Of a stretch of 64,000 nt of DNA, positions 1 to 19,030 are shown in pieces (positions within the stretch are counted from its first letter, which is position 1; each line of letters begins with the position of its first letter). Source of the stretch: Acidobacteriota bacterium (GTDB taxonomy: Bacteria; Acidobacteriota; Terriglobia; Bryobacterales; Bryobacteraceae). The notes below the pieces were generated by a model. That model worked only from the letters and a program-made list of their open reading frames with translations. It was not told where the DNA came from and did no database searches. Location: NCBI GenBank assembly GCA_029776225.1, contig JAKOTR010000080.1:23918-87917 (forward strand), given 5' to 3'. The position numbers and the translations under genes were made by a program.

Positions 1-1401
1 GAGGCCGAGATGCGCTACCACCTGGTCTTTCACGACGCGGCCGGCACGAGCTATCTGCTCGAAGGCCGCAAGTACATGGAGCGCAGCGGGCGCGGCGGCG
101 CCGCCGCCATCCGGGAGCTGCTCTACGACTACACGACGCTCTATTGCCGCGTCTACCGGCTGGATGCCGCCGGGAGCCGCCAGCCGTTGGGGCTCGCGTA
201 CCTGAAGTTCCGCACCTTCGAGGATCTCGCCGCGGTGGGCAACCTGGCTGGATTCCTTGCTTCGTTCCGCGTCACTGGGACCGCGGATCCGGCCTTGCAG
301 CTCCAGGCGCGCATGCGCTTCCTGGCTTTCACAGGCCAATTCGTGCAACGCGAATACGACCCGCTGTCGCCCGATATCGGCCGGCTCGACGTGGACGTGG
401 AGGCGGAGGTCCGGCGCGGCGCCGACACCCCGGACTACTTCACTACGCGCCCCACCAGCGAGTTGCACGCCATTCTCCGGGAGACGCAGTCGCTGCCGCT
501 CGAGCGCCTTCTCAACACCGGCGCCAGGCGCATCGACCTAACCCGCCGGCGCGTGATCCGCGACATCTTCTGGAAGGGCTCCTTCGCCGCCGACACCCTG
601 CTCGGCTGGGAGGAGCGCCTCCGGAATCAAGCGGTCCCCGGCGCCGAGCGCGCTGCGGCCATCTTCGCCCGCGGCAGTTTCTGGAAGCGCTTTGACCGCA
701 TCGAGAACGGCCGTGCCACGGGACACGTGGTGAACTACGATCTCGAGTGGCTTCCCGGCGATCCCGAGGTGCGCGAGGTCGAGTATCCCGACGACAACCG
801 CCGCTATTTCAAGAAGGGCGACCGCGTGCTGCTGCTCACCTACCGCAACGACCCCTACCGCATCGTCTACGACACCATCAAGCTCATCGACGAAGACAAC
901 GCCATCGGGGTAATGCACCTGGGCGACTTTCCCAATGGGATAGAGTTCGCCGCCTTCGTGATGTCGCGGCACAACTACCCGCTGGAGCATATGTCCATCG
1001 AGGACCACGAAGCCATCTTCAACATGCCGGGCGTTGAGGCAGTCGAAATCGAGGCGGCTAGCGCATGGGAGGGCAACCTGGTGCCGCTGGAACATCCGGG
1101 GACCAGCTTGCTCCGCCGGATCCCCGACGCGCCGGTGCGCATCGAGGTGGACTCCAACGGGAACCGCTCCCTGACGCTCGAAGCTGGTGGATCGAAGATG
1201 GTTTTTCCCCATGGTCAGGTGACGCTGGAGGTCCGGCGCATCGACGCCGATACGTTGCTGGGCAAAGCGGTCATCGCCGCCGCGGAGGTCTCGCTCGCCG
1301 CCGCGCTCCGCAACTACGCCTCCAGCGAAGATGGCCGGCTTGTGCTGCGCTGCCTCGTGAACCGCGCCGCGCGTGCGGAGTCCGGCGCCGCCGGATTGTG
1401 A
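1..1401 (+). CDS. GMC-oxidoreductase-associated protein, C-terminal part (5' end outside window)
   Basis: The first ATG is at 10, but the codons before it (GAG GCC GAG) are open in the same frame, so the gene probably starts outside the window. Residues 1-130 after that ATG resemble the domain that follows the flavin domain in cholesterol-oxidase-like GMC proteins: a 'MxYxLxF...G..Y.L.G.K' strand pair, then 'DYTTLYCRVYR', a 'GLAYLKFRTFEDL' segment and 'ARMRFLAFTGQF'. The remaining 330 residues (around 'FWKGSFAADTLLGW' and 'GVMHLGDFPNG') match no family I recognise. No signal peptide or membrane segment is visible. The gene converges on the CHAT/STAND operon, with 31 bp between the two stop codons. 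The family link is from memory of the sequence pattern. The function of the full protein cannot be judged without the upstream part. Confidence 0.6.
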   Translation, partial: EAEMRYHLVFHDAAGTSYLLEGRKYMERSGRGGAAAIRELLYDYTTLYCRVYRLDAAGSRQPLGLAYLKFRTFEDLAAVGNLAGFLASFRVTGTADPALQLQARMRFLAFTGQFVQREYDPLSPDIGRLDVDVEAEVRRGADTPDYFTTRPTSELHAILRETQSLPLERLLNTGARRIDLTRRRVIRDIFWKGSFAADTLLGWEERLRNQAVPGAERAAAIFARGSFWKRFDRIENGRATGHVVNYDLEWLPGDPEVREVEYPDDNRRYFKKGDRVLLLTYRNDPYRIVYDTIKLIDEDNAIGVMHLGDFPNGIEFAAFVMSRHNYPLEHMSIEDHEAIFNMPGVEAVEIEAASAWEGNLVPLEHPGTSLLRRIPDAPVRIEVDSNGNRSLTLEAGGSKMVFPHGQVTLEVRRIDADTLLGKAVIAAAEVSLAAALRNYASSEDGRLVLRCLVNRAARAESGAAGL

Positions 1402-1432: not shown

Positions 1433-2368
1433 TCAGACCACTCGGTAGGGCGGCTCGAAGTCGGCTACTCCGGCATGGCGTGCTGCCATCCAGCGCAGGA
1501 CGTAGACCTGCGCCGGGTCGGTCTTGGATCCTGTCAGCGCGTTGGGCAGCACTTCGAGCAGGATGTGGGCCCCCGGGTCCCTGTAGTAGTCGATATCCAG
1601 CTCCACCTTGATGAAGGGCTGGCAAGGGTGCCTGTCGTTCTCGTGAAAGGTGATCTGGACGTTGGCTTCGCCGAACTGCGCCTGCTTGTAGCTTCTGGTG
1701 GCGCCAGGGTGGAACGGGAGGGCGTCGGGCCGCGGCTCGAAGGCGCCCTTGGCGGCAGCGCGCTCCACTTGGTCCAACAGCCTCGTATCGGCCCAGGCAA
1801 AGAAGCGGTCCTGGTCCATCTGGTCCCAGATGAGCTCCTGCAGGTAATCTACGGGCGTGCCCTCCGGTAGGTGAATCTCCCGCAACGCGGTGAAAATGTT
1901 CAGGAAGCACGCGAGCGCGGCGGGGCGCTGCTCGAGCAGGTCTGTGTAGCGCCTGGCGGCGGTGTCCTTATCAGGAGGATCACCAGCGCCGGCCGTCAGC
2001 ACCCGCGCGTAGGCAGGGTCTCGCAGCAGCGTTTCCCAACGCGCCTCGTGAAAGTTGTATTCCGGGTTGTTGCGCACGAGCATCAGATCGATCTTCCCGG
2101 GTTGATCCGGAGTCACCTTGACCGGGGTGAAGCCGACCTGCCGGAAACCTTCCGCCCAGGCCACCACCGTGTAGCTGTCACCGAAGTTATTGTGAAACGG
2201 CAGTTTTTTGAACACAATCCTCGACGCTTTGTGAAACTCTCGGTGTACCTGTTTCTGGTATCCGTTCAGCAGGGTAATCAGGATGTTGGCGTCTGTCCTC
2301 AGGGGCTCGCGCAGCCCCGAGTACAGGCTTACTGTGATCTGGCAGGTTGGTTTCGTGGACTTAGGCAT
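1433..2368 (-). CDS. Hypothetical protein, last gene of the CHAT/STAND operon
   Basis: This 311-residue protein belongs to no family I recognise. It is soluble, with no signal peptide or transmembrane segment. An N-terminal beta-rich part ('CQITVSLYSGL', 'DSYTVVAWAEGF', 'KIDLMLVRNN') is followed by a helical middle and a C-terminal strand-rich part ('ANVQITFHEND', 'IKVELDIDYYRDPGAHILLEVL'). It starts 11 bp after the lipase-like gene and ends the six-gene minus-strand operon. Its place next to the lipase suggests a partner, chaperone or immunity-type role, but that is only inference from position. Codon use and GC content look like its neighbours. Confidence 0.7.
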   Translation of the reverse strand: MPKSTKPTCQITVSLYSGLREPLRTDANILITLLNGYQKQVHREFHKASRIVFKKLPFHNNFGDSYTVVAWAEGFRQVGFTPVKVTPDQPGKIDLMLVRNNPEYNFHEARWETLLRDPAYARVLTAGAGDPPDKDTAARRYTDLLEQRPAALACFLNIFTALREIHLPEGTPVDYLQELIWDQMDQDRFFAWADTRLLDQVERAAAKGAFEPRPDALPFHPGATRSYKQAQFGEANVQITFHENDRHPCQPFIKVELDIDYYRDPGAHILLEVLPNALTGSKTDPAQVYVLRWMAARHAGVADFEPPYRVV

Positions 2369-2379
2369 CTTCTATGCGG

Positions 2380-3228
2380 TTATGCGATGCCGGAGACGCT
2401 CTGGGCGATTCGTAAATAAACGGCCTGAATGGCGCGTTCGTACTCGACCGGGTTCTGTCCCGCCAGCCACTCGCGGACGTCCCACCAGCCGATTTGGTTG
2501 AAATGGTCGGCGGGAATCGGGAAGCGGTGCTGTGCGACGCGTTTTCTATGGCCGTCCGATACCAGTTCGGCGCACCACAACTGGGAGCGCACCGGCACCA
2601 GTCCATCGTTGTCTCCTTCGAAATTTTGGATGATCTGCCAGAATGCCTGGAGCGGACCGAGCACGCGGTATTTCTCCTGGCTGCTCGCGTAGGTTTGGTA
2701 CACCACCGGGTTGGCGGCTTCCGCTGCTTCGGCGCGCCGGTTGAATGCCTGGCAGGCGCTGGTGGTAAGGGAGGCGAACCCCCGGAGATCCACCACATCC
2801 TCGAGTGCGCGGATCAGCTCGTCCCCGCCGTTGCTGAGGCCCCAATCGGCGAAGCTGGTGCCAAGGTGCGGTGTTCCCACCGTCGTGAGACTTGCCACCT
2901 TCTGATCCATCCCGGGGATGTCCACGATCATGTGCCGCGCATCCAGCCCGCCCATGCTGTGACCGATGATGTGAACCTTCCCGTGCCGCGCGCACAGCGC
3001 ATCCACCTGCTCGGCCAGCTCCCTGGAGCGCTGCTCGATGCTGGCGGCGAAACTGACGTTGGTGTGATAGACGGTGAAGCCGTGCTGCTGGAGAAACGGC
3101 CTGATGTTGCGGAAGTAGTGCAGGGCGTCGTTGCCGGTAATGTCCGTGAGAATGCCGCGCGCCTCCAATTCCCTTCGCAGAATGTCGAACCGCGCGATGC
3201 CATGCGCCAGAACGATGGGATAAGCCAT
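2380..3228 (-). CDS. Triacylglycerol-lipase-like alpha/beta hydrolase
   Basis: This 282-residue alpha/beta hydrolase resembles bacterial family-I lipases. The chain opens with the oxyanion-type motif 'PIVLAHGI' (residues 4-11). The nucleophile elbow is GHSMGG (89-94, Ser91), followed by 'GTPHLGTSFADW' near 118-129. Near the C-terminus 'DNDGLVPVRS' supplies a candidate catalytic Asp, and a His lies in 'IPADHFNQIGW'. These segments follow the order seen in Pseudomonas-type lipases, which hydrolyse ester bonds of glycerides. No signal peptide is present, so it probably acts in the cytoplasm or on the inner face of the membrane unless exported by another route. It sits in the CHAT/STAND operon, 14 bp after the HEXXH gene. 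A cytoplasmic lipase beside a caspase-like protease fits a membrane-damaging effector, but this is inference. Confidence 0.82.
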   Translation of the reverse strand: MAYPIVLAHGIARFDILRRELEARGILTDITGNDALHYFRNIRPFLQQHGFTVYHTNVSFAASIEQRSRELAEQVDALCARHGKVHIIGHSMGGLDARHMIVDIPGMDQKVASLTTVGTPHLGTSFADWGLSNGGDELIRALEDVVDLRGFASLTTSACQAFNRRAEAAEAANPVVYQTYASSQEKYRVLGPLQAFWQIIQNFEGDNDGLVPVRSQLWCAELVSDGHRKRVAQHRFPIPADHFNQIGWWDVREWLAGQNPVEYERAIQAVYLRIAQSVSGIA

Positions 3229-3242
3229 GAGTACCCTCTCCT

Positions 3243-4616
3243 TTACTGAAGCCGCTGGAAGATCCGCGCGAAATCCTGCTTACCCAGCTTGCGGTTCTCC
3301 TCGTCGGCCTTTTGCTGTTGCTGCTGCGTGCGCGCCCGCTCCCCGGAGCGCAGATCGCTGGTCAACAGGCTCTCCATTTTTTGCTCCAGCCGCTCGGCGG
3401 GCGAGATGCCGTTGATGGGCCGGTAGTACGCATCCGGTTTCGTCGCGTAGGCGATGCGCGCTGCCGCCAGCATCACCCGCAGGTCGCGGTAGTCCTTGAG
3501 CACCCTGCCTTCGAGCGCGCATTGCGCCTGCGTCCGGGCGCGCTCGTACTGCGTCGCGTCGAAGGTGAGAGCCGAACGCAGCGAGCCGCCCAGGGCTTCG
3601 ATCTGGCCGTCCAGGAAACGCTCGGCAATCGCCGGCGCATCCTCCTCGGCGAAGCAGGACTGCCCGGCCGGCAGCGGATACTCCGCGTCCCAGGCCGTCA
3701 GGATGCGATCAGCCGGTTCCTCAAAGCCCATCTTCCGGAGGACCTGAACATTGATGCGGACGCGCAGGTTCTCCGGCGGGTACGGCTCCACGGCCGGCTG
3801 ACGGGCCAGCAGTTCCTGCGGGTCCGCCAGCAGGAAATCGGCCAGCGCGCAGACGAACGGCGGCCCCGCCGCCAGGCAGCCACAGACGTCCGCGAACACC
3901 TCCGAGCGCCACGCCTTCCACAGCGGAGCGCGCGCCGCGCCCCCGGATTCTTCGAGCGCTTCGTCGATCATGGTGTCGAGCGCCGCCTCCAGGTCGAAGT
4001 CGGCCTCCACCGAGTGGCCCACTTCGTGCCCGATGGCGAGGGCGTCCGGCAAGTGCAGCACCTGGTTCCACGGCACCCCGATCACTGGAAACGGCAGCGA
4101 CGAGGTGGCCTGCTTGAAGCCGGAGCCGCTGATCAGCTCTCGCGGAACCGCCTCCGCCTGGAAACTTGCGTCGCGAGTGAGGATGAACGGGCTCATCCCG
4201 CCGTTCAGGTAAACCAGCGGTGGCTCCTTCATCGCGCGCCCGGGGTTCGCCTGCCGCGCCTGCTCGTAGATCGGGTGGTAACACAGCCAGGCGAACTCGT
4301 CGGCAATCGCGAGATACCGCGCGAAGGCCTTCTCGTAACGCTGCGCCAGCTTGGAGCGGAAGAACTCCCAGATGCGATGTACTGCCAGCAGAGTGCGCGC
4401 CATTTCACGCGCGGTGGAAAGGCTGTTGTCGGTGGCCAGGATTTCACGGACGGCGTCCTGAAAGCCTTGCAGGCGGCCGATGGCGGCGCGCACCTGGGTG
4501 TGGTGCTTGGGGAACGGGCCGCCGGGGGCGGTGGCATTCAACCAGCGCTCGAACTCAAGCGCCAGGGCCTCCATCTTCCGCTCGACTTCCGCCTGCTTGC
4601 GTTCCGCGTAGCCCAT
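3243..4616 (-). CDS. HEXXH metallopeptidase-like protein
   Basis: This 457-residue protein has a zinc-peptidase-like core: HEVGH at residues 197-201 and, 37 residues later, a 'SEVFADV' segment (Glu239, Asp243). This is the HEXXH...ExxxD layout of gluzincins such as the M48 group. The N-terminal 130 residues are strongly helical with many Arg/Glu pairs and look like a coiled-coil or bundle. The C-terminal 150 residues are also helical and charged, ending in 'RSGERARTQQQQQKADEENRK'. There is no signal peptide or transmembrane helix, unlike true M48 proteases. The gene begins 4 bp after the STAND gene stop, so it is probably translationally coupled. It could be an effector or a processing enzyme of the operon. 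The peptidase call rests on the motif alone. Confidence 0.65.
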   Translation of the reverse strand: MGYAERKQAEVERKMEALALEFERWLNATAPGGPFPKHHTQVRAAIGRLQGFQDAVREILATDNSLSTAREMARTLLAVHRIWEFFRSKLAQRYEKAFARYLAIADEFAWLCYHPIYEQARQANPGRAMKEPPLVYLNGGMSPFILTRDASFQAEAVPRELISGSGFKQATSSLPFPVIGVPWNQVLHLPDALAIGHEVGHSVEADFDLEAALDTMIDEALEESGGAARAPLWKAWRSEVFADVCGCLAAGPPFVCALADFLLADPQELLARQPAVEPYPPENLRVRINVQVLRKMGFEEPADRILTAWDAEYPLPAGQSCFAEEDAPAIAERFLDGQIEALGGSLRSALTFDATQYERARTQAQCALEGRVLKDYRDLRVMLAAARIAYATKPDAYYRPINGISPAERLEQKMESLLTSDLRSGERARTQQQQQKADEENRKLGKQDFARIFQRLQ

Positions 4617-4620
4617 GCCG

Positions 4621-7600
4621 TTACCACGCCACCGGAATTTCGGGGTCCAGCGTGAACAGAGCCGGCGGCAGCAGAAGCGGCAACTCCGCGAGGCCGCGAT
4701 ACAAGTCGGCGGCGGAGCGCCGCTCAGCGGCGGCGTCGGCCATCCGCCTCACCGCGTCGCGCAGCACGAAGGGATCCGCAAGGCCGGCCGCCAGCACACC
4801 CCGCGTGTTGCCGAAGCGGAACAGTTCGTCGCAGAAGGCATTCCGCAGCAGCGCCTGCCGGGCCTGATCGTAGGGGTCCGGAGGCAGGACGGCTTCCACG
4901 AGAACAAAAGGATGCAAGCCGGCGCCGGAGATGCGCCGCAGCCATCCGTCCAGTGCGCTGGGGGTGATGGTTGATTCCATGCCGCCGAAATCCAGGCACA
5001 CCTCGCCAGTTCGTGTCGACTCCTGGAACGCCGTCACGAGGTGCACCAGGGTGGGGCGGAAGCCGGGCAGCCCCACCAGGGCCAGTTGCTCCGGTTCGTT
5101 GAGCCGCACGACTTCCACGCCGCACCGGATGTATTCGGCCGGCATCTCCACCCCGAAGTTGCTGTGCCCCCGCTTCGTGACCTGCTGCCGCTCCACGCTC
5201 GCTTGGATGATGAGGACCTGCGGCTTCTCCTTCGGCGGGTGTTCCGCCAGCAGTCTGGCGCGGGCTTCCCGCGGATCGTCGCCGAAGGCCTTCAACAGGC
5301 TGTCGGTCTGGGGACCGTAAATGCCATCGATAATAATGTCGCGGCCGGATCGCTGAACGGCCTCCTGCAGCATCAGGACCGTGTCGCGGATGGGAACCGG
5401 CTGAATGGGGCGCCTGTAGATGGTCCGGTACGCCGCGCCCGGCAGCACGGCCTCCCAGGGAATCGAAGCCAGCGCGCCGCGCGAAGTGCGAACTTCCAGG
5501 TAGGGACCGGGCAGCGCGCCCAGCGGCGCGAGCGAATCGCGCAGATGCGCCAGAAGGCTCTCGCGCGAATAAGCAAGTGGCTCCACCAGCTCGGCCGCGA
5601 AGCCACGGGAGCCGGAGGCGGCCGGCTCCAGCCGGATCGTGTGGACCTCCTTGGTGGGTGACTGCGCCCGCACGCCTTCGGGCGTTTTTTCCAGGAGCAG
5701 CGTGACCACGGGGGGCAGCAGGTCGGCATCCCGGTGGCTCTGGGACGCGACGTTCCTGTACGCCTCAATTTCCTTAGCCAGGGAAGCCGCCTTCAGCGCC
5801 GCCCCGGATTCCACCGCGGAGCGCTGCGCGGTCAGCAGCGCGGTGAGCGCCTCGCGTTGCTTGCCCGCACGCACGGCCAGCCTGGCGCGGACCTCGTGAC
5901 GCCGCGCTACCCAAAGCGAATGGTCGGGAAAGTACTCGCCGATGAGGCGCTCGGCCTGCTCGAACAGTTGTGCGGTCCGCCTGGGAACGTCGTCCAGAGA
6001 GTATTCCGCCTCTTCAAGCAGCGCCGTGCCCCACAGTTCCGGGAACTTGCTGTAGGCTGCGCGGTAGGCCGTCAGATAGGCGTCGCGATCCGGCAGCTCC
6101 AGCAGCCCGGCGCGTCGCATCGCGGCGCGGAGTTGCCGCTGGAAGTGCGGCTGCTCGCGGCACTCCCGGTAGGCAGCCAGCAGAACTTCGCGGGCCTGTT
6201 CCGCCAAACCAAAATGGGGCGCCGCCAGACCCCATAGCCACGCTCGCAGCGCGAAATCGCGGTCGCCGCGCTGGGGCCGCGGATAGACTTCGCCGAAGCG
6301 CTGCCGGAACCCGGAATACTGCACACGCTGCGCGACGGGCTGGCGCCGGTAGGCATCCAGGAACGGAAAGCGCGCGGCCAGATCGAGGGCCTCCACCTCT
6401 TTCAGAAAAGCGGCGATTTCTTCCCGGGTGGCCAGCCCCAACGCGCCCAGGTAGGCCAGAACCCGCAGCCGGCGCCGTTGCGAAGAGGTTCGCTTGAGGA
6501 TCTCCCGCAGCACATAAGCGGCGCGCTGGGGTTTGCCGGATTCGGCCAGGATGCGTGCCTTCAGCAGCGGGCGATCGGCGGCCACACTTGCCTGAGCGCG
6601 GGGGATCGAGTGCAGCGTCTCCTCCGCCTGGTGCACGTTGCCGGCGGCCTCCAGAAACAGCATGGCCTTCTGGAACAGCGCCTCCAGCGGACCGGTGGAA
6701 GATCCCTCGCGCACAAAGGCGTCGCGAGCCGCGTTGAACTGCTCCTCAGCTTCGTTCACTCGGAACGCCGCGCGATTAACAAGGCCACGCAGCAGCCGCG
6801 TAGTGCCGTCCTCGCCGAACGGGAGCAGGCTAAGCGCTGCCGCGGGATTCTGCCGCTCCAGCGCCAGACGCACCCGGATGCGAGCGATCTCGTACGGCAT
6901 CCACGGGTTGGAGGCGGCCAACCTGCGAGCCTGCGGCGATTCCGCCAGGCGTGCGGCATCCGACCAGCGCCCCAGTTCGCACAGCACGCGGCAGCATCCT
7001 GCCAGGAGCTCGGGCGCATAGTCGGGCGCAGTACGGCCGGCCGCCGCCCGCTTCCATGCTCGCTCGTAGCACTCCAGCGCGCGGCCTAACTCCTCGCGAT
7101 CCTCCAGCCGCCGCGCCCGCCGGAACTCGATCCACTCGGGCGAAAGAGGTGGCGCGGCAAGGCGCGCCGCCCGCCGTGCAGCCGCCGCGAACCAGGCATC
7201 CCCCTTGTCCGGATCGTGTTCGTAATGGCAGCGGCCGAGCAGGTACTCCGCCATCACCAGAGCGGCGGAGTCTCGCGACGGGCCTATGACGCGCAGCAGC
7301 AGCTTTTCCGCCGCCGCGCGGCGCTCCAGGAACAGCAGGTGCGCGGCCTCCAAAATCGACGCGCGCAACTCCTGAACACGCGGTTTCGCGGCGCGCTTCA
7401 TGAAGGAACGAAAACGCCGGTAGGCGTCGTTGAACTCGCCCTCGAGCCGCTCGGCGTCGCCCTCGAGGCTGCGCAGGCGCAGCCGCTCGACCAGCAATCC
7501 CCAGGCCTGCACGGCGGCCGCTTCGGCCAGCAGGTCGTAATCCACCAGAGGGCCCTCGAGATACTCCACCGGGCGCCCGTCATCGCCTGCGAAATCGCTC

Positions 7601-9645
7601 GAAAGCGGCACTTCGGCGATGCGCGCGGACGCCGCCGGCTCCCTTGCCTGCGGCGAAGCGAGGGCGCGCCGCCAATGCTCCGCGGCCGCCGTTCCCTCAA
7701 GGTGGAAGCGGTGATACAGCGCTTCGGCCATGTGCCGCGCCCAGCTCACGGCGTTTTTCTTGGATTGGGCTGCGCGCCGCTCGAAATACCGCACTGCCGC
7801 CCGCTGCAACAGCGGATGGATTTCCTGCTCGCGGAGCAACTGCCGCATGGGGACGCGGACTTCCGGCTGCAGTACCAGCACGTCGCCGTGCAGCTCCACC
7901 CAACTGTGATCGCTGGCGTAGCGGCTGAGCTGGTTCCACAGCCGCCGGAGGTCTTCTTCCCGGTGCTTGCGCCACACTTCCCGTCCGGCGTAAAGCGACA
8001 GCTCGCCTCGGAATTCGTTGGGACGGTCCAGTTGCGACCGCCGCGTCATCTCCTTCAGCAGGAACGGCCCCAACACGTCCCGCATGAACTCGAAAGTCAA
8101 CTGCCGCGGCACAACCGCGTAGCGCAGCAGCCACGCAACGCCGTGCTCCTCCGGCGGGATGCGATCGATGATGCGCTCAATCAGCCGCGCGTACTGCGTT
8201 CCCGGATAGCGCTCGACATCGCGCGCGGTCATCCCCGGGCTGGCGATGGCCAGGTCCGCGAACAGGGCCAGCTCGAACGGGTTGCCCTGGGTCTTCTTGA
8301 TAATCGCCTGCACGGGCGTCTGCGGCGGCACTTTACGGAGGTCGCGCAGGTAGTGCAGGCTCTCCTCCGGCTCGAAACCTTCGATGAGCAGCCGGTCCTC
8401 GAGGGCGCAATGCTGCTTCATGAACTGCGGAAGACGCCCCGGATCGGCCAGGTTGTAGCGTCCCGCCAGCAGCAGTTGCAGTCCCGGACACCTCTCGCGC
8501 AGCCGCGCCAGTTGGTTGAGTATGGCCTGCAGCCCGGAGCGGTGATGCAACAGCAACTCCTCGATGGTGTCGAGCACGATCACCACATGGCTGTCTCCGA
8601 GACCTGACTGGAAGAGAGCGGGAATCTCGGACGCCAGCATTTCGGCTTCCGGACGGAGCCGCTGGAGCAGGAGCGAGCGGGAATCGTCGCGGCCCTGGAC
8701 GGCCGGCCGCCGCAGCACCGCTGCGAAATCGCCAAAGCCGTGTATCAGGCTCAGGAACGGACTGCCGGGAAGCTGCACGTTGAGCTGCCGGGCAACCGGC
8801 AGCAGAACCAGCCACGGCCATCGCGACAGCGACGGCAGGTCCAGGCGGTCCGAATCCAGGCGCGCGACCGGAATCCGGCGGCCGTCGATCTCCCGCACGC
8901 AGCGCCGGGCGATCAGCCACCGGATGAACATGGTCTTGCCGAAGCCGCCCTTGCCATAGAGGTGCAGGATCCACCGGCGGGTATCGCCCTGCCACTCCTC
9001 GAAGTGCCGCACGAGCGAGGGCCGCTCGACGAACGCCATGGTGCGCCAGTAATCGTCGGCGAAGAGCGTCCGGGAGCGATAGTACTGCTCGCGGTCGTCC
9101 AGCGCGTCGCGCAGCGCCTGGGGGATGAGAGAGGGGAAGAGTCCGTTGCGGTGCCTCACGATGCGGATCAGCGTGTCGCACTGCGCCAGGTCGAAAGCCT
9201 CGTCCGCCTCACGGTAGAGCCGCAGGAATTCCTCGAGCGCCCGCGCAGGATCGGCAAGCACAAGGTGTGTGAAGCGCTCCAACGGATCGATCGGCTCGAA
9301 GTATGCGGCCAGCTTCGCACTGAAGGCGCGCGCCTCTTCGGGTTGCTGCTTCCAGGCCTCCAGCCCCGCACGGGCGGCGTCGTCGCGCAGTGCGTAGCGC
9401 ACGGGTTCGCCGCGCAAGCGCTCCACGTCCGGAGAAGCGATGAACGCCTCCCAGTCCGGCGCGTCCGGGAGGTCCGCCGCCAGTACCCGTTCAAAAAGCT
9501 CACGGTCGAACCATCGCAGCAGGGCAGCACGCCGGAGCAGCGGCGATGCAGGCGGCTCTGGCGGCGCATCCAGGACCATGTTGAACAGGTCCGTGAGCGT
9601 CCGGCCCCGCTCGATCATTGCAAAGAGCTGATCCTTCGTAAACAC
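4621..9645 (-). CDS. Large STAND-type NTPase with helical repeats and a degenerate CHAT-like C-terminus
   Basis: This 1674-residue protein starts at a GTG that shares one base with the TAG stop of the upstream CHAT gene (TAGTG), a clear sign of translational coupling. Residues 1-210 are a helical N-terminal region. The NTPase core has Walker A GKGGFGKT at 231-238, a Walker B-like 'VVIVLDTIEE' near 354-363 and a sensor-like 'LLLAGRYN' at 391-398, as in NACHT/STAND ATPases. Residues 650-1310 are rich in Ala/Arg/Glu helix pairs that look like TPR-type repeats. The last 350 residues resemble a CHAT domain ('LEVRTSRGALASIPWEAVL' and a 'VHLVTAF' strand), but they lack the GHG histidine and the NAC cysteine. 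A peptidoglycan-binding-like motif (1423-1455) is inserted there. It is probably the sensor and oligomerising scaffold of the operon. Confidence 0.75.
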   Translation of the reverse strand: MFTKDQLFAMIERGRTLTDLFNMVLDAPPEPPASPLLRRAALLRWFDRELFERVLAADLPDAPDWEAFIASPDVERLRGEPVRYALRDDAARAGLEAWKQQPEEARAFSAKLAAYFEPIDPLERFTHLVLADPARALEEFLRLYREADEAFDLAQCDTLIRIVRHRNGLFPSLIPQALRDALDDREQYYRSRTLFADDYWRTMAFVERPSLVRHFEEWQGDTRRWILHLYGKGGFGKTMFIRWLIARRCVREIDGRRIPVARLDSDRLDLPSLSRWPWLVLLPVARQLNVQLPGSPFLSLIHGFGDFAAVLRRPAVQGRDDSRSLLLQRLRPEAEMLASEIPALFQSGLGDSHVVIVLDTIEELLLHHRSGLQAILNQLARLRERCPGLQLLLAGRYNLADPGRLPQFMKQHCALEDRLLIEGFEPEESLHYLRDLRKVPPQTPVQAIIKKTQGNPFELALFADLAIASPGMTARDVERYPGTQYARLIERIIDRIPPEEHGVAWLLRYAVVPRQLTFEFMRDVLGPFLLKEMTRRSQLDRPNEFRGELSLYAGREVWRKHREEDLRRLWNQLSRYASDHSWVELHGDVLVLQPEVRVPMRQLLREQEIHPLLQRAAVRYFERRAAQSKKNAVSWARHMAEALYHRFHLEGTAAAEHWRRALASPQAREPAASARIAEVPLSSDFAGDDGRPVEYLEGPLVDYDLLAEAAAVQAWGLLVERLRLRSLEGDAERLEGEFNDAYRRFRSFMKRAAKPRVQELRASILEAAHLLFLERRAAAEKLLLRVIGPSRDSAALVMAEYLLGRCHYEHDPDKGDAWFAAAARRAARLAAPPLSPEWIEFRRARRLEDREELGRALECYERAWKRAAAGRTAPDYAPELLAGCCRVLCELGRWSDAARLAESPQARRLAASNPWMPYEIARIRVRLALERQNPAAALSLLPFGEDGTTRLLRGLVNRAAFRVNEAEEQFNAARDAFVREGSSTGPLEALFQKAMLFLEAAGNVHQAEETLHSIPRAQASVAADRPLLKARILAESGKPQRAAYVLREILKRTSSQRRRLRVLAYLGALGLATREEIAAFLKEVEALDLAARFPFLDAYRRQPVAQRVQYSGFRQRFGEVYPRPQRGDRDFALRAWLWGLAAPHFGLAEQAREVLLAAYRECREQPHFQRQLRAAMRRAGLLELPDRDAYLTAYRAAYSKFPELWGTALLEEAEYSLDDVPRRTAQLFEQAERLIGEYFPDHSLWVARRHEVRARLAVRAGKQREALTALLTAQRSAVESGAALKAASLAKEIEAYRNVASQSHRDADLLPPVVTLLLEKTPEGVRAQSPTKEVHTIRLEPAASGSRGFAAELVEPLAYSRESLLAHLRDSLAPLGALPGPYLEVRTSRGALASIPWEAVLPGAAYRTIYRRPIQPVPIRDTVLMLQEAVQRSGRDIIIDGIYGPQTDSLLKAFGDDPREARARLLAEHPPKEKPQVLIIQASVERQQVTKRGHSNFGVEMPAEYIRCGVEVVRLNEPEQLALVGLPGFRPTLVHLVTAFQESTRTGEVCLDFGGMESTITPSALDGWLRRISGAGLHPFVLVEAVLPPDPYDQARQALLRNAFCDELFRFGNTRGVLAAGLADPFVLRDAVRRMADAAAERRSAADLYRGLAELPLLLPPALFTLDPEIPVAW
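5281..5379 (-). other. Peptidoglycan-binding-like motif inside the STAND protein
   Basis: Residues 1423-1455 of the STAND protein read as a PG_binding_1-like motif: a 'LQEAV' helix, 'GRDIIIDGIYGPQT' and 'LLKAF'. The usual family pattern is LQ..L...G.....DG.YGP.T..A...F. It falls between the 'IPWE' strand and the Rossmann-like strand 'KPQVLIIQA' of the degenerate CHAT-like domain. The similarity is visible by eye, but the stretch is short and a chance match is possible. Confidence 0.4.
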
Positions 9646-11654
9646 TACAGCAACTCCAGCAAGGCCACCAGCTTCGGCAGTTCGTCCGGCCGAACGTCGC
9701 GTCGCAACTGTTGAAGATGAACCGCCAGCGCCGGCAGCGGGCGGCCCGGATTGCGGCGGAAGAAGAACTCCTTCAACAGCTCAGGCACCTCACCGGCCGG
9801 GAACTTTTTCAAGTCGATGACCTGCCACAGGTCCTCGGCAAACTCGAGCTGGTAATCGCCGCGCGAGTCGAACGGCAGTTCAACGATGATCTTTACGGGT
9901 CCCGCCGGTTCGGCCGCAATCCGGTCCCACAGGTTTTCCTTCAGAATGCGGATGTGGGCGGCGCTCAGCGACTGCAGCGGCGTGCTGATGCGGCTCACCG
10001 CAACCACCGTGTTCTTTCCGGTGTGCTCGGCCTGGTTGCGCAGGGCCTGGTGAAAGGTCCCCAGCACCTTCTCATGGGCGTCGTTGCGGGAAGCAAGGTC
10101 CTCGAGTGTGATCTGGAGGCGGTTTCCGGGCGGCGGCGCCGCGATTCCCGCAAGCCGCGCCACGTCTTCGTAAAAGCGCTGGCGCACCTCCGGCGCGAGC
10201 GGCTGCGCCAAATCGTCCATTTCCAGCGATCCTTCCGCGAGCGCCAGCACGAACTGCAGCCAGTCGGTCTTGTCGAACGCTTCGATGGCGTGCACTCCGT
10301 AGCGGTTCTGCGCCAGTGCGTGCAGCAGCCACATCTGCAGCCATGTCTTGCCGACCTTCTCCTCCTGGCCTTTCAGGACCACGGCCGAGCAGTGCCGCCT
10401 GGCGATCTCGCTTTGCGCCATCGAATGGATCGCCAGCCGCCGCTCTTCGACGCGGTCCACGAAGCACCGGCGTACTTCATCCAGCCCAGGCGCGCTCACC
10501 CGCGCGCGGCGCGGGCAGTCCAGAATGTGCTCCGGCGCGGCAGCCACGCTGAGGACGGGCACGAACGCGTGCCGCGTGTCCGCTCCCATCGCCGCGTGCA
10601 CCATGTCGCGGGCCGCGGCCAGCGCCCCGTCGATGTGGCGGCCGTTGACCAATTCGCTGTAGAACCGCCGCGTGCAGATGCGAGCCGCCTCGCCGCTGAC
10701 GTCCGCCTGCATGGCCAGCACCGAGAGCGCCCGCCCGCGGAAGAAGGCCTGCGCGATGGAAAAGAAATCGCTGTGTTTCGGCAGTGCCGTGCGGCAGGCG
10801 TTGAGGAACGCCAGGCGCAGCACGCCTCCCATGGTCCTGATGTCGAGTTCGATCTGGGCGCTGGTCCAGTCGTGCTTGTTCTGCGCATCGCAGATTTCCA
10901 GCCGCGGCGTCCCGCCGTCGGTCCGTCCGTGCCCGATGAAATGGAAGATGTGCGGCCGGAAGGTCTGCAACTCGATTTTCAAATCGGCCGGAGTGAAACT
11001 CTTGCGGCGCCGCGTTTCCAGAATGGCCAAATCGAACAGGTGCTCGGATTCCCGCAGCACCTCGCGGATGGCCTCGAGTTCCTCGTCGGCCTTCAAGCTG
11101 GCGGCTTCGGCTTCCCCAGCTCCAACTACCACCAGCACGCGGATGGGCCATACAGCCGCGTCGCTGCGCGGGATGAACTTGCGCTTTTCTGCCCGCAGCA
11201 CCGGCATGTCGCTGATGAGAAACAGGTCGTGGGTGGACCGCATCAGTTCCCAGGGCAGCGCCGCCAGCGAGTCGTCAACCTGGAGATAAGTGCGCAAGCC
11301 CGCGGGCCGGGGAGTGGTGGCCTTGGCTGCGGGCGACTGCGCTTCCCACTCCTCGATTGCTTCCTCCACTTCCTGGATGGCGCGGTCCCACTCAGCCGCT
11401 ACCGAGCCGGTGTGCAGCGCCGACCACATCTGGCAGCCGATCACGCGGAAGTTGCTGTCCTGATCCTCGGTTTCCAGAAAGAAGCGCTGGATAGCGGCTA
11501 CGTCGAGTGCGCCGCCCGGCTCGAAGAGCGCCGCGGGCAGCGCCTCCCGGGCCGCAGGCTTCTCCTCGCGCACGCCACCGCGCCACCGGTATAGCTCCAC
11601 CACGTAGTCGCCGCTGCCGCTCGGACGCGATACCGCCAGCGTGATCGAGTTCAT
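9645..11654 (-). CDS. CHAT-domain caspase-like protease with C-terminal P-loop-like region
   Basis: The open frame extends back to 12008, but the first 118 codons only shadow the phosphoesterase gene. The ATG at 11654, 4 bp after that gene's TGA, gives 669 residues. Residues 120-370 form a CHAT domain: 'AALPWELM' (131-138), 'HIFHFIGHG' with His242 and 'LAFLNACRTA' with Cys287, the expected catalytic pair of this caspase-like (clan CD) family. Residues 376-669 follow with a P-loop-like 'GQEEKVGKTW' (429-438) and Rossmann-like strands ('NTVVAVSRI', 'PVKIIVELPF'), resembling a reduced STAND module. The next gene encodes a STAND NTPase, so the pair may form a sensor-protease complex. CHAT proteases are known partners of gasdermins and of the type III-E CRISPR effector. 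Neither is seen in this window. Confidence 0.85.
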   Translation of the reverse strand: MNSITLAVSRPSGSGDYVVELYRWRGGVREEKPAAREALPAALFEPGGALDVAAIQRFFLETEDQDSNFRVIGCQMWSALHTGSVAAEWDRAIQEVEEAIEEWEAQSPAAKATTPRPAGLRTYLQVDDSLAALPWELMRSTHDLFLISDMPVLRAEKRKFIPRSDAAVWPIRVLVVVGAGEAEAASLKADEELEAIREVLRESEHLFDLAILETRRRKSFTPADLKIELQTFRPHIFHFIGHGRTDGGTPRLEICDAQNKHDWTSAQIELDIRTMGGVLRLAFLNACRTALPKHSDFFSIAQAFFRGRALSVLAMQADVSGEAARICTRRFYSELVNGRHIDGALAAARDMVHAAMGADTRHAFVPVLSVAAAPEHILDCPRRARVSAPGLDEVRRCFVDRVEERRLAIHSMAQSEIARRHCSAVVLKGQEEKVGKTWLQMWLLHALAQNRYGVHAIEAFDKTDWLQFVLALAEGSLEMDDLAQPLAPEVRQRFYEDVARLAGIAAPPPGNRLQITLEDLASRNDAHEKVLGTFHQALRNQAEHTGKNTVVAVSRISTPLQSLSAAHIRILKENLWDRIAAEPAGPVKIIVELPFDSRGDYQLEFAEDLWQVIDLKKFPAGEVPELLKEFFFRRNPGRPLPALAVHLQQLRRDVRPDELPKLVALLELL

Positions 11655-11658
11655 GGGA

Positions 11659-13023
11659 TCAGCAGATGGTTTCGGAATAGTGCTCCAGGCCGTCCTCGCT
11701 GATGTAGCGCGCGCGGATCGATCCGTCTTCGAAGTCCAGAACCGCGAAACCGAAACGCGTGAAGCGCTCGAGCCCATCGCGGAAGGTCTCGCGAAACTCG
11801 TGGACCACCCCGGGTGGCGTCGGGCCTTTCGGCGCGTAAACCGGGACGCCCCCGTGGCCCACCAGCCGCGCATAGGGCACGGGGTGGTTGCGGTCATAGA
11901 TCGCGCAGCGATGCTCGTGCGCCCAGAACCACGCCGTAACGCCATTCGGCTGCGAGAGCACCGGTTGCAGCTTGCGCTCCAGTTCCGGAGACCCTCCTTC
12001 CCAGGCACTGAACAACTGGTGATGGCTCAGGAGCACGGCCTTTTTCTGCGGCGCGGCGGCGCGCTTCTCCCGCACCCACGCCGCCTGCGGGCCGTACAGG
12101 CTCCCCTTTTCGCCGCGGTAATCCTGGGCATCGTAGCCGGTGTCCAGGGCCAGGATCTGCCAGTGGTCGTTCTCCAGCGAGAAGTAGCTGCATCCGCCCT
12201 GGCGCGCAAAGCGCGGCTCCTTGAGCAGGTAGTCGAAATAGGCATGCCCGCCTGTGAACATGTCGTGGTTGGCGTTGAGGCAGAAAGAGCCGATGGCGTC
12301 CGCTTCGGACTCCTTCACCGGCCAGAAGGGCAGGAAACGGTCGCGGTATTCGCTTTCGAAGCCCGAGTAGTAGACGTCGCCCAGGTGGATGACGTGCCGC
12401 TCGCGGTCCGGCGCCGCTTCGAGTTCCCTGCGCATGCGCGCGGCTACTTTTTGGGCGCGCGGCACGCCGCTGCCCCAGTCCCCCACCAGCAGCACGCGGG
12501 CTCGGTTGCCGATCCGCACGGTTGGAGGCGGCGCGGTGGGGAAGGGCCGCTGCCCGCGCATGGCGGCCAGGGCCTTGGCTGCCAGGAAGGCCACCGCCCA
12601 GCGCGGATCGGTCATTTCAAAGGGCCGCGCGAAACCCTGCGGTCCGGCGGGCTGCCACTCGGCCTTGAGAGAGCGGTCAGTGATGGCGACGTCCTGACCC
12701 GCCAGTCCCTGGGCTGCGGTCTCATCCACTGCGCCGGCGTCCCGATAGAACTCTTCAATGGCCGATTGGAGAACGCCGGTCATGGGGTCGCGCGCAATCC
12801 ACGCTGCGTCGCTGCCGCTCGCCGGCGGCGTCCCCTGGGCGCGCAGGTCCCGGATGGCGTTCAGCGCGTCGCGCAGGTCTGCTGGGCCCAGACCGTGCGA
12901 TTCGGCCATGGCCGCCGCGGCCGTGTCCCCATCTTCCAGAGCGCGCGCACGGTTTTCGAGCGCACCTTCCACAACCTGGAGACACTTCTCGAAGTCGCTT
13001 GCAGAAACGATTTCCCGGATCAT
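11659..13023 (-). CDS. Calcineurin-like metallophosphoesterase, first gene of the CHAT/STAND operon
   Basis: The C-terminal 285 residues of this 454-residue protein form a calcineurin-like phosphoesterase. Metal-binding motifs appear in order: GDWGSG (181-186), 'HLGDVYYSG' (213-221), 'NANHDM' (250-255, in place of GNHD), 'LLSHHQ' (331-336) and 'HEHR' (369-372). The substrate cannot be read from the sequence; the family includes nucleotidases, cyclic-nucleotide phosphodiesterases and protein phosphatases. The N-terminal 170 residues are helical ('LEDGDTAAAAMAE', 'DLRDALNAIRDL') and match nothing I know. They could be an adaptor for the STAND partner. The ATG is preceded by a strong Shine-Dalgarno sequence (GAGGGG). 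As the promoter-proximal gene it may control signal levels or act as an effector. No signal peptide is present. Confidence 0.85.
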   Translation of the reverse strand: MIREIVSASDFEKCLQVVEGALENRARALEDGDTAAAAMAESHGLGPADLRDALNAIRDLRAQGTPPASGSDAAWIARDPMTGVLQSAIEEFYRDAGAVDETAAQGLAGQDVAITDRSLKAEWQPAGPQGFARPFEMTDPRWAVAFLAAKALAAMRGQRPFPTAPPPTVRIGNRARVLLVGDWGSGVPRAQKVAARMRRELEAAPDRERHVIHLGDVYYSGFESEYRDRFLPFWPVKESEADAIGSFCLNANHDMFTGGHAYFDYLLKEPRFARQGGCSYFSLENDHWQILALDTGYDAQDYRGEKGSLYGPQAAWVREKRAAAPQKKAVLLSHHQLFSAWEGGSPELERKLQPVLSQPNGVTAWFWAHEHRCAIYDRNHPVPYARLVGHGGVPVYAPKGPTPPGVVHEFRETFRDGLERFTRFGFAVLDFEDGSIRARYISEDGLEHYSETIC

Positions 13024-15254: not shown

Positions 15255-16754
15255 TCACCCCGCCAGGCGCTCCAGCTTCACGTCGGTTACAAAGAGCGTT
15301 CCGCGGTCCACGAAAAAGCCGAAGTGTCCCGGCTGGGCGCTTTGCAGTGGCGCCTCCAGGTTCAGCATGTTTTTCCAGGACGCGAAGATGCGGCCGTTGC
15401 GTACTTCCAGCGTGAGGCGGTAGGCCACGTCGTCCGCGATGTTGAACCAGGAGCGCGCAAGGACCTGGCGGGCCTCGGGACGGTTCCGGACCAGAAAAAC
15501 CTTGCCGTCCGGGGAATACCTGGCGGTCAGCGTCGCTTCAATGCCTCCGGCGCCGTCGGGACCTGCGAGCGCGACTGCTCCCATGTACTCGCCCGGGGAT
15601 TTCACCGCGGTCAGGGTCAGCCGCGCGTTCTGCACCGCCGAAACGTCGATCAGCGCGAGCGCCCGGCCGCTTTTCGAGCTGAGCCGGAGATGCCCGTCCA
15701 GTACGGCCGCCTCGGCATCGCTTCCGATGATCTTGAGCTGTTCCAAGGGGAGCTGCGACGGCCCCCCGAGCGTCAGATACCGGTCCGCCTCCGAACCCAT
15801 TGGGGAACGTTGCTGCATGCGGGCGGAAATAAAATCCTCAAACGGAAAATGCTGGGATTTCTGAATAATTAGCACCCGGCCGTCCGGGTACAGATACATG
15901 ACGTGGTAACTGAACGGAGCAATGACGTTCGCCGTGCGGACGAGCACCGGAACCCCGCCCATGGTTTCCGCGGAGTTGATGTGCCTGTGTCCGCAGATCA
16001 CCGCCTTGACGCACCCGGCTGACGCGATGGCTTCCTCGAACTCCGCCCGGTCGACCCAGTTCGCGGGCGGCACATGGGTGCAGATGATGACCTTCAGGCC
16101 GCGCGAGGACGCCTCCTTCAGGCTGGCACGCAGCCAGTCCATTTGAACGCGACCGAGCCCGAAAACATTGCCGCGGCCGTAGCGGCCGTTGGGGTTTGGC
16201 AGGAGGCAGTTAACTCCCACGATGCGCCAGCCCTTGAGATCGTGGCGGCGATAGGGCGCTCCGAAGTGCCGGGTCCAGGCTCCCAGTTGCGCCTCGTCCG
16301 TGTAGCTCGCTTCCAGCGTTTCATGATTGCCCAGGAGCGGCATGAACGGATGCGTGAGGCGGCCGTAGAACGCCTTCGCGAACGCCAGTTGCCGGTTGTA
16401 CTCGTCGGGCGGCGGGAAAAACGACCCTCCGGCGCTAATCACATCCCCGCCATGGACGGACAGGTCGGGCCGCTCCTCGTTGAGGACTTCGGCCAGGTCG
16501 GGCATCCGGCGGTCGGTGCTGGTCGTGATCTGTGCGCCGCCACCCCAATTCTCCAGGTGTCCGGGCCAGTAGTGGTGGTCGCTGACAAAGACGATTTTGC
16601 TTTCCCATCCCTCGGGAACGAAGCGGCCGGTGTAAAGGACAGTCCCGCCGCCCGCCGCCTGTCCGGCGAGCGCAGTGCGGGCCGCGGAAGCCCCGGCGAG
16701 GGCAGTGCTCCAAATCTGCAGGAAAGCGCGGCGGCCAAGTCTGGTGCTCTTCAT
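15255..16754 (-). CDS. Tat-exported calcineurin-like metallophosphoesterase
   Basis: This 499-residue protein starts with a twin-arginine-type signal ('GRRAFLQIW', residues 7-15, then an Ala-rich hydrophobic stretch to about residue 30). The phosphoesterase motifs follow: 'FVSDHHYW' (D-x-H, near 53), 'VHGGDVISAGG', 'LLGNHETLE', 'VIICTHVPP' and 'AVICGHRHI'. The last 200 residues are beta-rich and hold a laminin-G-like or DUF1080-like jelly roll ('LTLEVRNGRIFASWKNML', 'GHFGFFVDRGTLFVTDVKLERL'). The protein probably acts in the periplasm on an unknown phosphoester. It is transcribed divergently from ribBA and is unrelated in sequence to the phosphoesterase at 11659-13023. Confidence 0.85.
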   Translation of the reverse strand: MKSTRLGRRAFLQIWSTALAGASAARTALAGQAAGGGTVLYTGRFVPEGWESKIVFVSDHHYWPGHLENWGGGAQITTSTDRRMPDLAEVLNEERPDLSVHGGDVISAGGSFFPPPDEYNRQLAFAKAFYGRLTHPFMPLLGNHETLEASYTDEAQLGAWTRHFGAPYRRHDLKGWRIVGVNCLLPNPNGRYGRGNVFGLGRVQMDWLRASLKEASSRGLKVIICTHVPPANWVDRAEFEEAIASAGCVKAVICGHRHINSAETMGGVPVLVRTANVIAPFSYHVMYLYPDGRVLIIQKSQHFPFEDFISARMQQRSPMGSEADRYLTLGGPSQLPLEQLKIIGSDAEAAVLDGHLRLSSKSGRALALIDVSAVQNARLTLTAVKSPGEYMGAVALAGPDGAGGIEATLTARYSPDGKVFLVRNRPEARQVLARSWFNIADDVAYRLTLEVRNGRIFASWKNMLNLEAPLQSAQPGHFGFFVDRGTLFVTDVKLERLAG

Positions 16755-18529: not shown

Positions 18530-19030
18530 ATGCTGTTGGCTGTGGCGATGCTGTATGCCGCTGCGACGAGCGGCTTCTGGCTGGATGTGCCTTACATCCG
18601 GCAGGAAAAGAACGGCTGCGGCGCGGCGAGCATCGCCATGGTCATGCAGTACTGGAAGGAGAGAGGCGCTCCCGTGAGCGCCGCGGACGCCGGTCCCGAA
18701 GCCATTCACAAGCGGCTGTATTCGCGGCGCGCCAAAGGAATCTACGCATCCGACATGGAGGGGTATTTCCGCGAAAAGGGATTTGAAGTTTTCGCTTTTC
18801 GCGGCGAGTGGGCGGACCTTGAGCAGCACATCCGCAAAGGCCGCCCGCTGATCGTGTGTTTGCGTCAGGGCGGCCCGCTGCATTACGTGGTTGTGGCCGG
18901 GGTGGATGACGGCTTCGTTCTGGTGAACGATCCCGCGCGCCGGAAGCTGCTGAAGCTGGATCGCGAAGGGTTCGAGCGCGACTGGAAAGACCGCTGGACG
19001 CTGCTGGCCGTTCCGCGGCAGGTCCAGTAA
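18530..19030 (+). CDS. C39-like (PA2778-family) cysteine peptidase
   Basis: This 166-residue papain-like peptidase of the C39 type has a short hydrophobic N-terminus. The catalytic Cys30 sits in 'QEKNGCGAASIAMVMQYW', His118 in 'GPLHYVVVAGV' and the third residue, Asp134, in 'LVNDPARRK'. C39 peptidases usually remove double-glycine leaders inside ABC exporters. Here there is no transporter, and the free-standing form follows a PA2779-like gene, as in the PA2778/PA2779 pair. The stop codon overlaps the next start (TAATG), coupling it to the TPR-barrel gene. Its substrate is unknown. Confidence 0.8.
   Translation: MLLAVAMLYAAATSGFWLDVPYIRQEKNGCGAASIAMVMQYWKERGAPVSAADAGPEAIHKRLYSRRAKGIYASDMEGYFREKGFEVFAFRGEWADLEQHIRKGRPLIVCLRQGGPLHYVVVAGVDDGFVLVNDPARRKLLKLDREGFERDWKDRWTLLAVPRQVQ

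What the first reader, a model, noticed from the sequence alone, without database searches (positions are those of the whole stretch)
1433..13023. Six-gene operon joining a phosphoesterase, a CHAT protease, a STAND NTPase, an HEXXH peptidase, a lipase and an unknown protein
Seen in sequence: six minus-strand genes with gaps of 4, -1 (TAGTG), 4, 14 and 11 bp, so they are made together. The CHAT protein keeps its His242/Cys287 pair, the STAND protein keeps Walker A and B, the lipase keeps its Ser, and the metallopeptidase keeps HEXXH and the downstream Glu. Known: CHAT proteases and STAND NTPases are typical of bacterial defence and regulated-death systems. Inference: the STAND/CHAT pair senses a trigger, the protease activates partners, and the lipase (plus perhaps the lipid-type GMC protein) damages membranes. 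I know of no described system with this gene set.
Basis: partly seen in the sequence, partly recalled or inferred. Interest (0 to 1): 0.85.

Follow-up and report, generated by a model that had tools for sequence, protein, structure and literature searches.

The report
Bacterial protease switch with swappable hydrolase
Six adjacent genes in one bacterial genome contain a three-protein protease module (an intact caspase-like CHAT protease, a large ATPase carrying a dead copy of that protease, and a zinc-type peptidase) that recurs side by side in distant bacteria next to different hydrolases, and it likely acts as an alarm that would switch on a self-damaging enzyme, here predicted to be a lipase.

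Summary
In detail: six minus-strand genes at 1433-13023 with gaps of 4, -1, 4, 14 and 11 bp, and intact active-site motifs. They do not travel as a six-gene unit. Three do: CHAT, STAND and HEXXH lie in that order on one strand in 25 of 36 loci found with the HEXXH family, in Acidobacteria, Planctomycetes, Myxobacteria, Actinobacteria and Chloroflexi, and on a Sinorhizobium conjugative plasmid. CHAT His/Cys, STAND P-loop and HEXXH...E are kept in 26 of 26 sets, window included. Beside the core stand different hydrolases: trypsin-like (5 of 26), matrixin-like (3 of 26), the window's lipase (1 of 26); subtilase, phospholipase D or C25 peptidase in related loci. All six trypsin-like proteins found have a 67-113-residue leader before an intact I-[IV]-G-G start: sequence evidence for zymogens. 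Best reading: a defence or regulated-death switch of the STAND/caspase kind with a replaceable effector. Defence is untested; development or stress proteolysis remains a real rival. My open-library paper searches showed no description of this gene set.

The parts
11659..13023 (-). MPE: calcineurin-like metallophosphoesterase, 454 aa, about 170-residue N-terminal region without a Pfam family
   Evidence: Metallophos 39.7 bits; PDB purple acid phosphatases E 3.9e-6; in the loci examined, homologues only in L005 and L009, upstream of CHAT
9645..11654 (-). CHAT: intact caspase-like CHAT protease (His242, Cys287) followed by a P-loop domain related to the STAND NTPase; core gene 1
   Evidence: His and Cys 26 of 26; C-terminal part vs STAND NTPase: hhalign probability 97.9, E 3.8e-13
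4621..9645 (-). STAND: helical N-terminus (not modelled), P-loop NTPase (Walker A at 231, Walker B at 355), long middle part, C-terminal catalytically dead CHAT domain; core gene 2
   Evidence: (C-terminus vs CHAT: probability 97.3, E 2.7e-11)
4630..5610 (-). pseudo-CHAT domain within the STAND gene (codons 1346-1672)
   Evidence: catalytic His and Cys positions substituted in 26 of 26
3243..4616 (-). HEXXH: glutamate-zincin-like metallopeptidase (HEVGH 197-201, Glu239), 457 aa, no known family matched; core gene 3
   Evidence: (AlphaFold2 mean pLDDT 90.1)
2380..3228 (-). LIP: alpha/beta-hydrolase of the bacterial true-lipase type (GHSMGG, Ser91); starts at the catalytic domain, no signal peptide evident by inspection; putative effector
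   Evidence: (lactonizing lipase 9g8u E 1.9e-14)
1433..2368 (-). UNK: carboxypeptidase-regulatory/CnaB-like beta-sandwich (residues 7-101) plus a conserved C-terminal domain; possible partner of lipolytic enzymes
   Evidence: (mean pLDDT 90.3)

Best explanation
Six co-directional genes here include a three-protein protease module (an intact CHAT protease, a STAND ATPase that ends in a catalytically dead CHAT domain, and a HEXXH metallopeptidase) that recurs across several bacterial phyla and likely forms a trigger-sensing switch whose CHAT protease would activate a locus-specific hydrolase, here predicted to be an intracellular lipase that damages the cell's own membrane. Shown by sequence: the core, its fixed order in most loci found, the intact active-site residues, the dead CHAT partner, and the change of neighbouring hydrolase between lineages. 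Inferred: (1) the STAND protein senses an invader or stress and assembles on ATP binding; (2) its dead CHAT domain docks and clusters the active CHAT protease, as a pseudo-enzyme scaffold; (3) active CHAT cleaves the neighbouring zymogen and perhaps the HEXXH peptidase, whose invariant Arg148 lies in the one stretch of its model under pLDDT 50; (4) the local hydrolase (trypsin, matrixin, subtilase or lipase) destroys proteins or membranes and stops the cell or the invader. In the window, LIP with UNK occupies that position. MPE may break down a nucleotide signal.
For: Core order in 25 of 36 HEXXH loci; CHAT-STAND junction is a 4-bp overlap in 17 of 25, STAND-HEXXH in 15 of 25. Also on a Sinorhizobium conjugative plasmid. 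Rearranged but together as HEXXH-CHAT-STAND in L055, L056, L057 and L096. CHAT and HEXXH fused in one ORF in L006. Pairwise distances of the three proteins correlate over 26 loci (rho 0.69-0.81; 0 of 2000 permutations reach it). Active CHAT 26 of 26, dead CHAT 26 of 26; hhalign E 2.7e-11, against probability 0.2-1.2 for three unrelated pairs. Hydrolases beside the core: trypsin in 5, matrixin in 3 and lipase in 1 of 26; subtilase in L055 and L057; phospholipase D next to HEXXH and CHAT in L102. All 6 trypsin-like proteins have a 67-113-residue leader, an intact I[IV]GG start and GDSGGP; 5 of 6 have D-x-x-R just before it. Only PDB sequence hit of the CHAT protein at E <= 1: 8tl0, a CHAT domain protein (E 9.7e-9). 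PADLOC SAVED_CHAT is hit weakly by the window's and L011's CHAT. Patchy: 13 of 151 relatives, own genome included, and neither of two incomplete congeners.
Against: No defence or toxicity phenotype is known. 17 of 26 complete-core loci have no hydrolase directly downstream; 14 of 26 have another recurrent gene upstream of CHAT. The lipase stands beside the core only in the window among 26. It has no propeptide, so how it would be held inactive is unexplained; UNK may do it. Seven of 36 HEXXH genes (six Streptomyces and L010) have no CHAT or STAND gene detected nearby. The second CHAT of L035 keeps His and possibly Cys, so the dead partner is not universal, and in L055 and L096 the STAND C-termini gave no hit to either CHAT profile. 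The D-x-x-R site rests on two lineages, and trypsins can self-activate after Arg. The signal-peptide check was crude: its positive control scored no higher than the test proteins.
Confidence: 0.5

Rival explanations
1. A regulated-proteolysis system for cell differentiation or envelope stress, not defence: the STAND/CHAT/HEXXH set would process cellular proteins during development in filamentous or aggregating bacteria, and the hydrolases would remodel membrane or protein stores.
For: Many carriers are filamentous or complex-living genera by name (Streptomyces, Kitasatospora, Saccharothrix, Herbidospora, Polyangium; habit recalled). HetF, a cell-division protein family, is a weak hit of the CHAT protein (E 0.07). 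Conflict systems also favour such hosts, so this does not separate the two.
Against: Patchy presence in relatives, plasmid carriage and changing neighbours do not look like a conserved developmental pathway.
Confidence: 0.25
2. The core makes or activates a secreted or injected weapon or an extracellular enzyme, i.e. it is a maturation system for exported hydrolases rather than a self-directed switch.
For: True lipases and matrixins are commonly exported enzymes (recalled). The hydrophobicity check cannot exclude export: the control P0009, which I read as having a twin-arginine start, scored 1.17, and several companions scored higher.
Against: No signal peptide evident by inspection in the lipase or in most S1, M10 and S8 companions; no secretion gene among the six.
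Confidence: 0.12
3. Two unrelated units lie together by chance: a CHAT/STAND/HEXXH core and a lipid cassette (lipase, UNK, GMC oxidoreductase) with no functional tie.
For: Lipase relative on a contig without core genes, L053; UNK apart from the core in other genomes; UNK and a GMC relative in one strand series in L075.
Against: Gaps of 14 and 11 bp on one strand. Close homologues of HEXXH (93 and 84%) and UNK (80 and 70%) report the same longest-contig lengths, 134736 and 50055 bases, with source tags ACM3S5_05155 and _05165 in one MAG, so the linkage probably persists there (the contigs were not read). The same position holds other hydrolases elsewhere.
Confidence: 0.13

Closest known systems
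VMAP/iSTAND ternary and other NTP-dependent conflict systems (Kaur et al. 2020, PMC7159879: abstract, outline, passages, section 32 and part 1 of section 9 seen)
   Same: NTPase switch, caspase-fold protease, variable effectors, mostly multicellular bacteria. In VMAP systems a caspase-superfamily domain is always accompanied by a neighbouring alpha/beta-hydrolase gene. Trypsin, subtilisin and STAND components are described in System 3.
   Different: No MoxR or vWA family matched the six proteins; the constant parts here are CHAT, STAND with dead CHAT, and a HEXXH protein. The held text has no occurrence of CHAT by that name.
Craspase (type III-E TPR-CHAT; PMC9729208, passages seen)
   Same: A CHAT protease with His/Cys dyad, held inactive in a complex and switched on by an invader signal; related to separase, which cleaves after EXXR.
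   Different: RNA-guided partner there; here a STAND ATPase with a dead CHAT domain and a metallopeptidase.
SAVED-CHAT protease (PADLOC PDLC02016; PDB 8tl0, a CHAT domain protein that I recall as SAVED-CHAT)
   Same: Closest solved CHAT by sequence (PADLOC hit); a protease upstream of further proteases (recalled).
   Different: Pfam lists CHAT only and no SAVED hit in the window protein; P-loop domain follows the CHAT domain instead.
STAND NTPase/trypsin and bacterial Death-like domain systems (PMC8195603, passages seen)
   Same: STAND NTPase with trypsin or caspase partners and, for some, an alpha/beta-hydrolase domain.
   Different: Homotypic adaptor domains there; none was identified here (no dedicated search was made).
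Caspase-8/cFLIP-type active/dead protease pairs (recalled analogy only)
   Same: An active protease paired with a catalytically dead homologue.
   Different: No homology claimed beyond the caspase fold; docking untested.

Membership tests
CHAT peptidases (PF12770) | Profile match over cut-off and catalytic His/Cys | tested here: met
   68.3 bits, cut-off 24; His and Cys in 26 of 26
CHAT peptidases, domain at STAND C-terminus | Catalytic His/Cys | tested here: not met
   homologous (E 2.7e-11) but both residues replaced in 26 of 26: a dead relative, not an active protease
STAND NTPases | Walker A GK[ST] and Walker B Asp | tested here: met
   26 of 26 for both motifs. Best Pfam hit AAA_22 26.5 bits, just under its cut-off 27. 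The plasmid L101 STAND protein, not among the 26, gave no match to a simple P-loop pattern
STAND NTPases | Nucleotide-driven oligomerisation | not testable with these tools
   needs biochemistry
Glutamate zincins (clan MA, as recalled) | HEXXH plus a downstream Glu | tested here: met
   H197, E198, H201, E239; kept in 26 of 26 core sets and invariant in 40 of 40 rows of A1
Glutamate zincins | Known fold | tested here: inconclusive
MoxR-vWA ternary conflict systems | MoxR, vWA and a third component | tested here: not met
   no MoxR or vWA family among the Pfam or NCBIfam hits of the six proteins
SAVED-CHAT | SAVED domain N-terminal to CHAT | tested here: inconclusive
   Pfam at E <= 1 lists CHAT only; that Pfam holds a SAVED model is recalled. 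The PADLOC hit has two stretches, of which only the best, 290-365, is shown
EACC1-caspase two-gene systems | 5' gene with one membrane helix | tested here: not met
   no membrane-helix-like stretch in the 5' gene MPE (19-residue maximum 0.84). In 6 of the 26 complete-core loci, the window not among them, a small protein with a hydrophobic stretch precedes CHAT
CATRA ternary systems | CATRA protein with its caspase partner | not tested
   one mention seen; defining paper not seen
Anti-phage defence systems | Protection against phage | not testable with these tools
   PADLOC gives only weak partial hits

The most novel reading that the evidence does not exclude
A bacterial apoptosome-like proteolytic switch: a STAND ATPase uses a dead CHAT domain as the docking platform for an active, separase-like CHAT protease. 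That protease clips cytoplasmic trypsinogen-like, matrixin-like or subtilase zymogens after acidic-x-x-Arg, or releases a lipase, with a new metallopeptidase family as the obligate third member. It is a widespread, plasmid-mobile death system whose executioner enzyme is swapped between lineages.
Probability: 0.3. Interest if true: 0.9.

Novelty: new variant of a known kind. Interest (0 to 1): 0.72.

Why it matters
If right, bacteria own a caspase-type initiator paired with a dedicated dead homologue on an ATPase, feeding interchangeable executioner enzymes that include trypsinogen-like zymogens. That would give a simple, testable bacterial parallel to animal death cascades, add a conserved metallopeptidase family that the libraries searched here do not name, and offer new phage-defence candidates in soil bacteria and rhizobial plasmids.

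Tried and rejected

Distant HEXXH relatives in the phylum (9 of 396 genomes, own included; the other nine places 24-31% identical) were not used for the core count. Of the regions fetched around such relatives, L055-L057 and L096 carry a rearranged core. L054, L058, L059, L061, L062, L094, L095, L097-L099 showed no CHAT hit; L060 had only a weak STAND hit (E 1.1e-7); in L100 no HEXXH gene was called; gene calling failed largely in L058 and L061, where only open frames were scanned. In L014 and L017 my gene calls split the start of HEXXH in two. Defence-island enrichment was not tested against a background.

Paper searches: (CHAT, STAND NTPase and HEXXH together) gave 0 papers, one search gave 0 and one search gave 0; two searches gave 1 each; of the longer lists only the rows shown were seen (8-12 of 11 to 1,661), and none of those titles describes this gene set. 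The library lacks most subscription papers and preprints, so absence there is weak.
Full report
The observation. reproduce the six genes, their coordinates, their gaps (4, -1, 4, 14, 11 bp) and the catalytic motifs. The window is contig 5, bases 23918-87917, of a 5.18-Mb, 115-contig genome that is 97.7% complete. It is probably of the Bryobacteraceae (Acidobacteria): a genome listed as of the same family holds a contig whose length equals that of the record titled Bryobacteraceae (G494 and L009, 18026 bases). Pfam assigns CHAT, Metallophos and alpha/beta-hydrolase domains above cut-off; the STAND P-loop is just under cut-off, and HEXXH and the last gene match nothing over cut-off.

What is conserved. 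A search with the HEXXH protein found 208 relatives among the 7994 best candidates, the only ones scored; 40 rows were aligned (A1), in which H197, E198, H201 and E239 are invariant. A pattern-based scan of a collection of 84,980 species genomes with A1 gave 36 loci. In 25 of 36 the order is CHAT, STAND, HEXXH on one strand; the CHAT-STAND junction is a 4-bp overlap in 17 of 25 and the STAND-HEXXH junction in 15 of 25. By record titles, and for genus names by recalled taxonomy, these lie in Acidobacteria, Planctomycetota, Polyangia, Actinobacteria and Chloroflexi, plus one unnamed bacterium (L027). Of the other 11: L006 fuses CHAT and HEXXH in one frame; L035 has HEXXH, CHAT, CHAT; L038 has a STAND gene cut by the contig end, then HEXXH; L019 has a CHAT-like piece near the contig end, then HEXXH. 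L010 and six Streptomyces loci (L030, L031, L033, L036, L037, L040) have no CHAT or STAND gene detected nearby. Three plasmid records carry HEXXH: the Sinorhizobium one has the full core, the Bradyrhizobium one has phospholipase D, HEXXH, CHAT, CHAT, and the Paraburkholderia one showed no CHAT hit. Two of the three are typed as conjugative. Four genomes of the window's phylum carry the three genes as HEXXH, CHAT, STAND (L055-L057, L096). Distances between the three proteins correlate over 26 loci (rho 0.81, 0.69, 0.72; 0 of 2000 permutations); shared ancestry of the hosts contributes to this.

A dead partner. Over the 26 sets, window included, the CHAT His and Cys, the STAND Walker A and B and HEXXH...E are all kept (26 of 26 each, read). 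The STAND C-terminus aligns with the CHAT domain (hhalign probability 97.3, E 2.7e-11; three unrelated pairs gave 0.2-1.2), yet the catalytic His and Cys positions are replaced in 26 of 26. The CHAT protein carries, after its protease, a P-loop domain related to the STAND NTPase (probability 97.9, E 3.8e-13). So the two large proteins mirror each other: CHAT then NTPase, and NTPase then dead CHAT. Outside the 26 the picture is mixed. In the second HEXXH locus of L007 a CHAT protein stands beside a CHAT relative (E 6.4e-10) that lacks both residues. L102's first CHAT keeps His and, by reading, lacks Cys. In L055 and L096 the STAND C-termini look to me like dead CHAT domains, but neither CHAT profile hit them. 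L035's first CHAT keeps His and possibly Cys, an exception.

The neighbour changes. Directly downstream of HEXXH, on the same strand within 160 bp, the 26 complete-core loci have: trypsin-like S1 in 5 (L011, L012, L013, L015, L028), matrixin-like M10 in 3 (L014, L026, L027), the lipase in 1 (window), other genes in 3 (an N-acetyltransferase in L032, a kinase-like protein in L039 by reading its sequence, an ABC transporter in L029), and nothing in 14. Upstream of CHAT, 14 of 26 have one of three recurrent genes: MPE (3, window included), a 273-303-aa protein of unknown family (5) or a small 132-151-aa protein with a hydrophobic stretch (6). Outside the complete-core set: M10 beside HEXXH in L010 and L038, subtilase beside it in L055 and L057, and a C25 peptidase plus a weakly matched alpha/beta-hydrolase on the strand opposite the plasmid core in L101. 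The second HEXXH gene of L007 is followed by S1 and an alpha/beta-hydrolase relative.

Zymogens. The six S1 proteins have leaders of 67-113 residues and then I[IV]GG, with GDSGGP further on. Trypsin-fold enzymes need a cut before that Ile to become active (established knowledge). Five of six have D-x-x-R just before it, but four of the five are Saccharothrix, so there are two independent cases. Separase, the eukaryotic relative of CHAT, cleaves after EXXR (PMC9729208, passage). None shows a clear signal peptide by inspection, but the hydrophobicity measure did not separate a positive control.

The window's own additions. LIP resembles bacterial true lipases (lactonizing lipase 9g8u E 1.9e-14) and starts at its catalytic domain. 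At E <= 1e-20 it is in 2 of 101 relatives, own included; the other copy, 45% identical, lies on an 11.9-kb contig without a core gene. UNK belongs to a family with 1315 hits. It is in 9 of 61 relatives, own included. Wider regions were read for six of the other eight genomes: neighbours include a weak patatin match that overlaps it in L076 (25.1 bits, cut-off 27.7), a phosphoesterase-family protein in L077, and a GMC relative in the same strand series in L075; L078 has a topoisomerase-helicase; in L074, L079 and L080 I recognised no lipolytic neighbour. The tie of UNK to lipid enzymes is thus a lead only.

How it likely works. Shown: anatomy, conservation, exchange of neighbours. Inferred: STAND senses; ATP-driven assembly; the dead CHAT domain recruits the active one; CHAT cuts a zymogen; the hydrolase kills or arrests the cell. 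Known conflict systems of multicellular bacteria pair caspase-fold proteases with alpha/beta-hydrolases and use replaceable effectors (PMC7159879), which supports the reading but does not make this a member: no MoxR or vWA family was found. Patchy presence (13 of 151 relatives, own included, eight of them at E between 1e-10 and 1e-5; neither of two incomplete congeners), plasmid carriage and variable effectors favour conflict over housekeeping; nothing here tests it.

Verdict. Confidence in the module is high; in the defence or death role, about one half.

Noticed in passing
window 10-1401 (+) and L104 1-4416: C-terminal part of an open frame of at least 1472 codons that begins outside the window with GMC oxidoreductase domains; it converges on the operon 31 bp from UNK, and a relative lies near UNK in L075.
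   Followed up: partly
L063 9427-11829 (G000 contig 14): A second, stronger CHAT-domain gene (155.9 bits) in the same genome, away from the window.
   Followed up: no
L021 1863-2687, L023, L025, L032, L034 and L031, L033, L036, L037, L040: A 273-303-aa family without a Pfam or NCBIfam match precedes CHAT in five actinobacterial cores and precedes HEXXH in Streptomyces loci that lack CHAT/STAND.
   Followed up: partly
L017 2024-2479, L018, L020, L022, L024, L029, L035 2080-2502: Small 132-151-aa protein with an N-terminal hydrophobic stretch just before CHAT or, in L035, HEXXH; possibly membrane-bound.
   Followed up: partly
L102 6672-25143: On a Bradyrhizobium conjugative plasmid, PLD-like enzymes, a patatin-like enzyme, an S8/S53 peptidase, a GMC oxidoreductase and a gene annotated peptidase M4 surround HEXXH-CHAT-CHAT.
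   Followed up: partly
window 15255-16754 (-): A second metallophosphoesterase, with a twin-arginine-like start by reading, just outside the operon.
   Followed up: no
window 18530-20529 (+): C39-type peptidase gene followed directly by a TPR protein gene.
   Followed up: no
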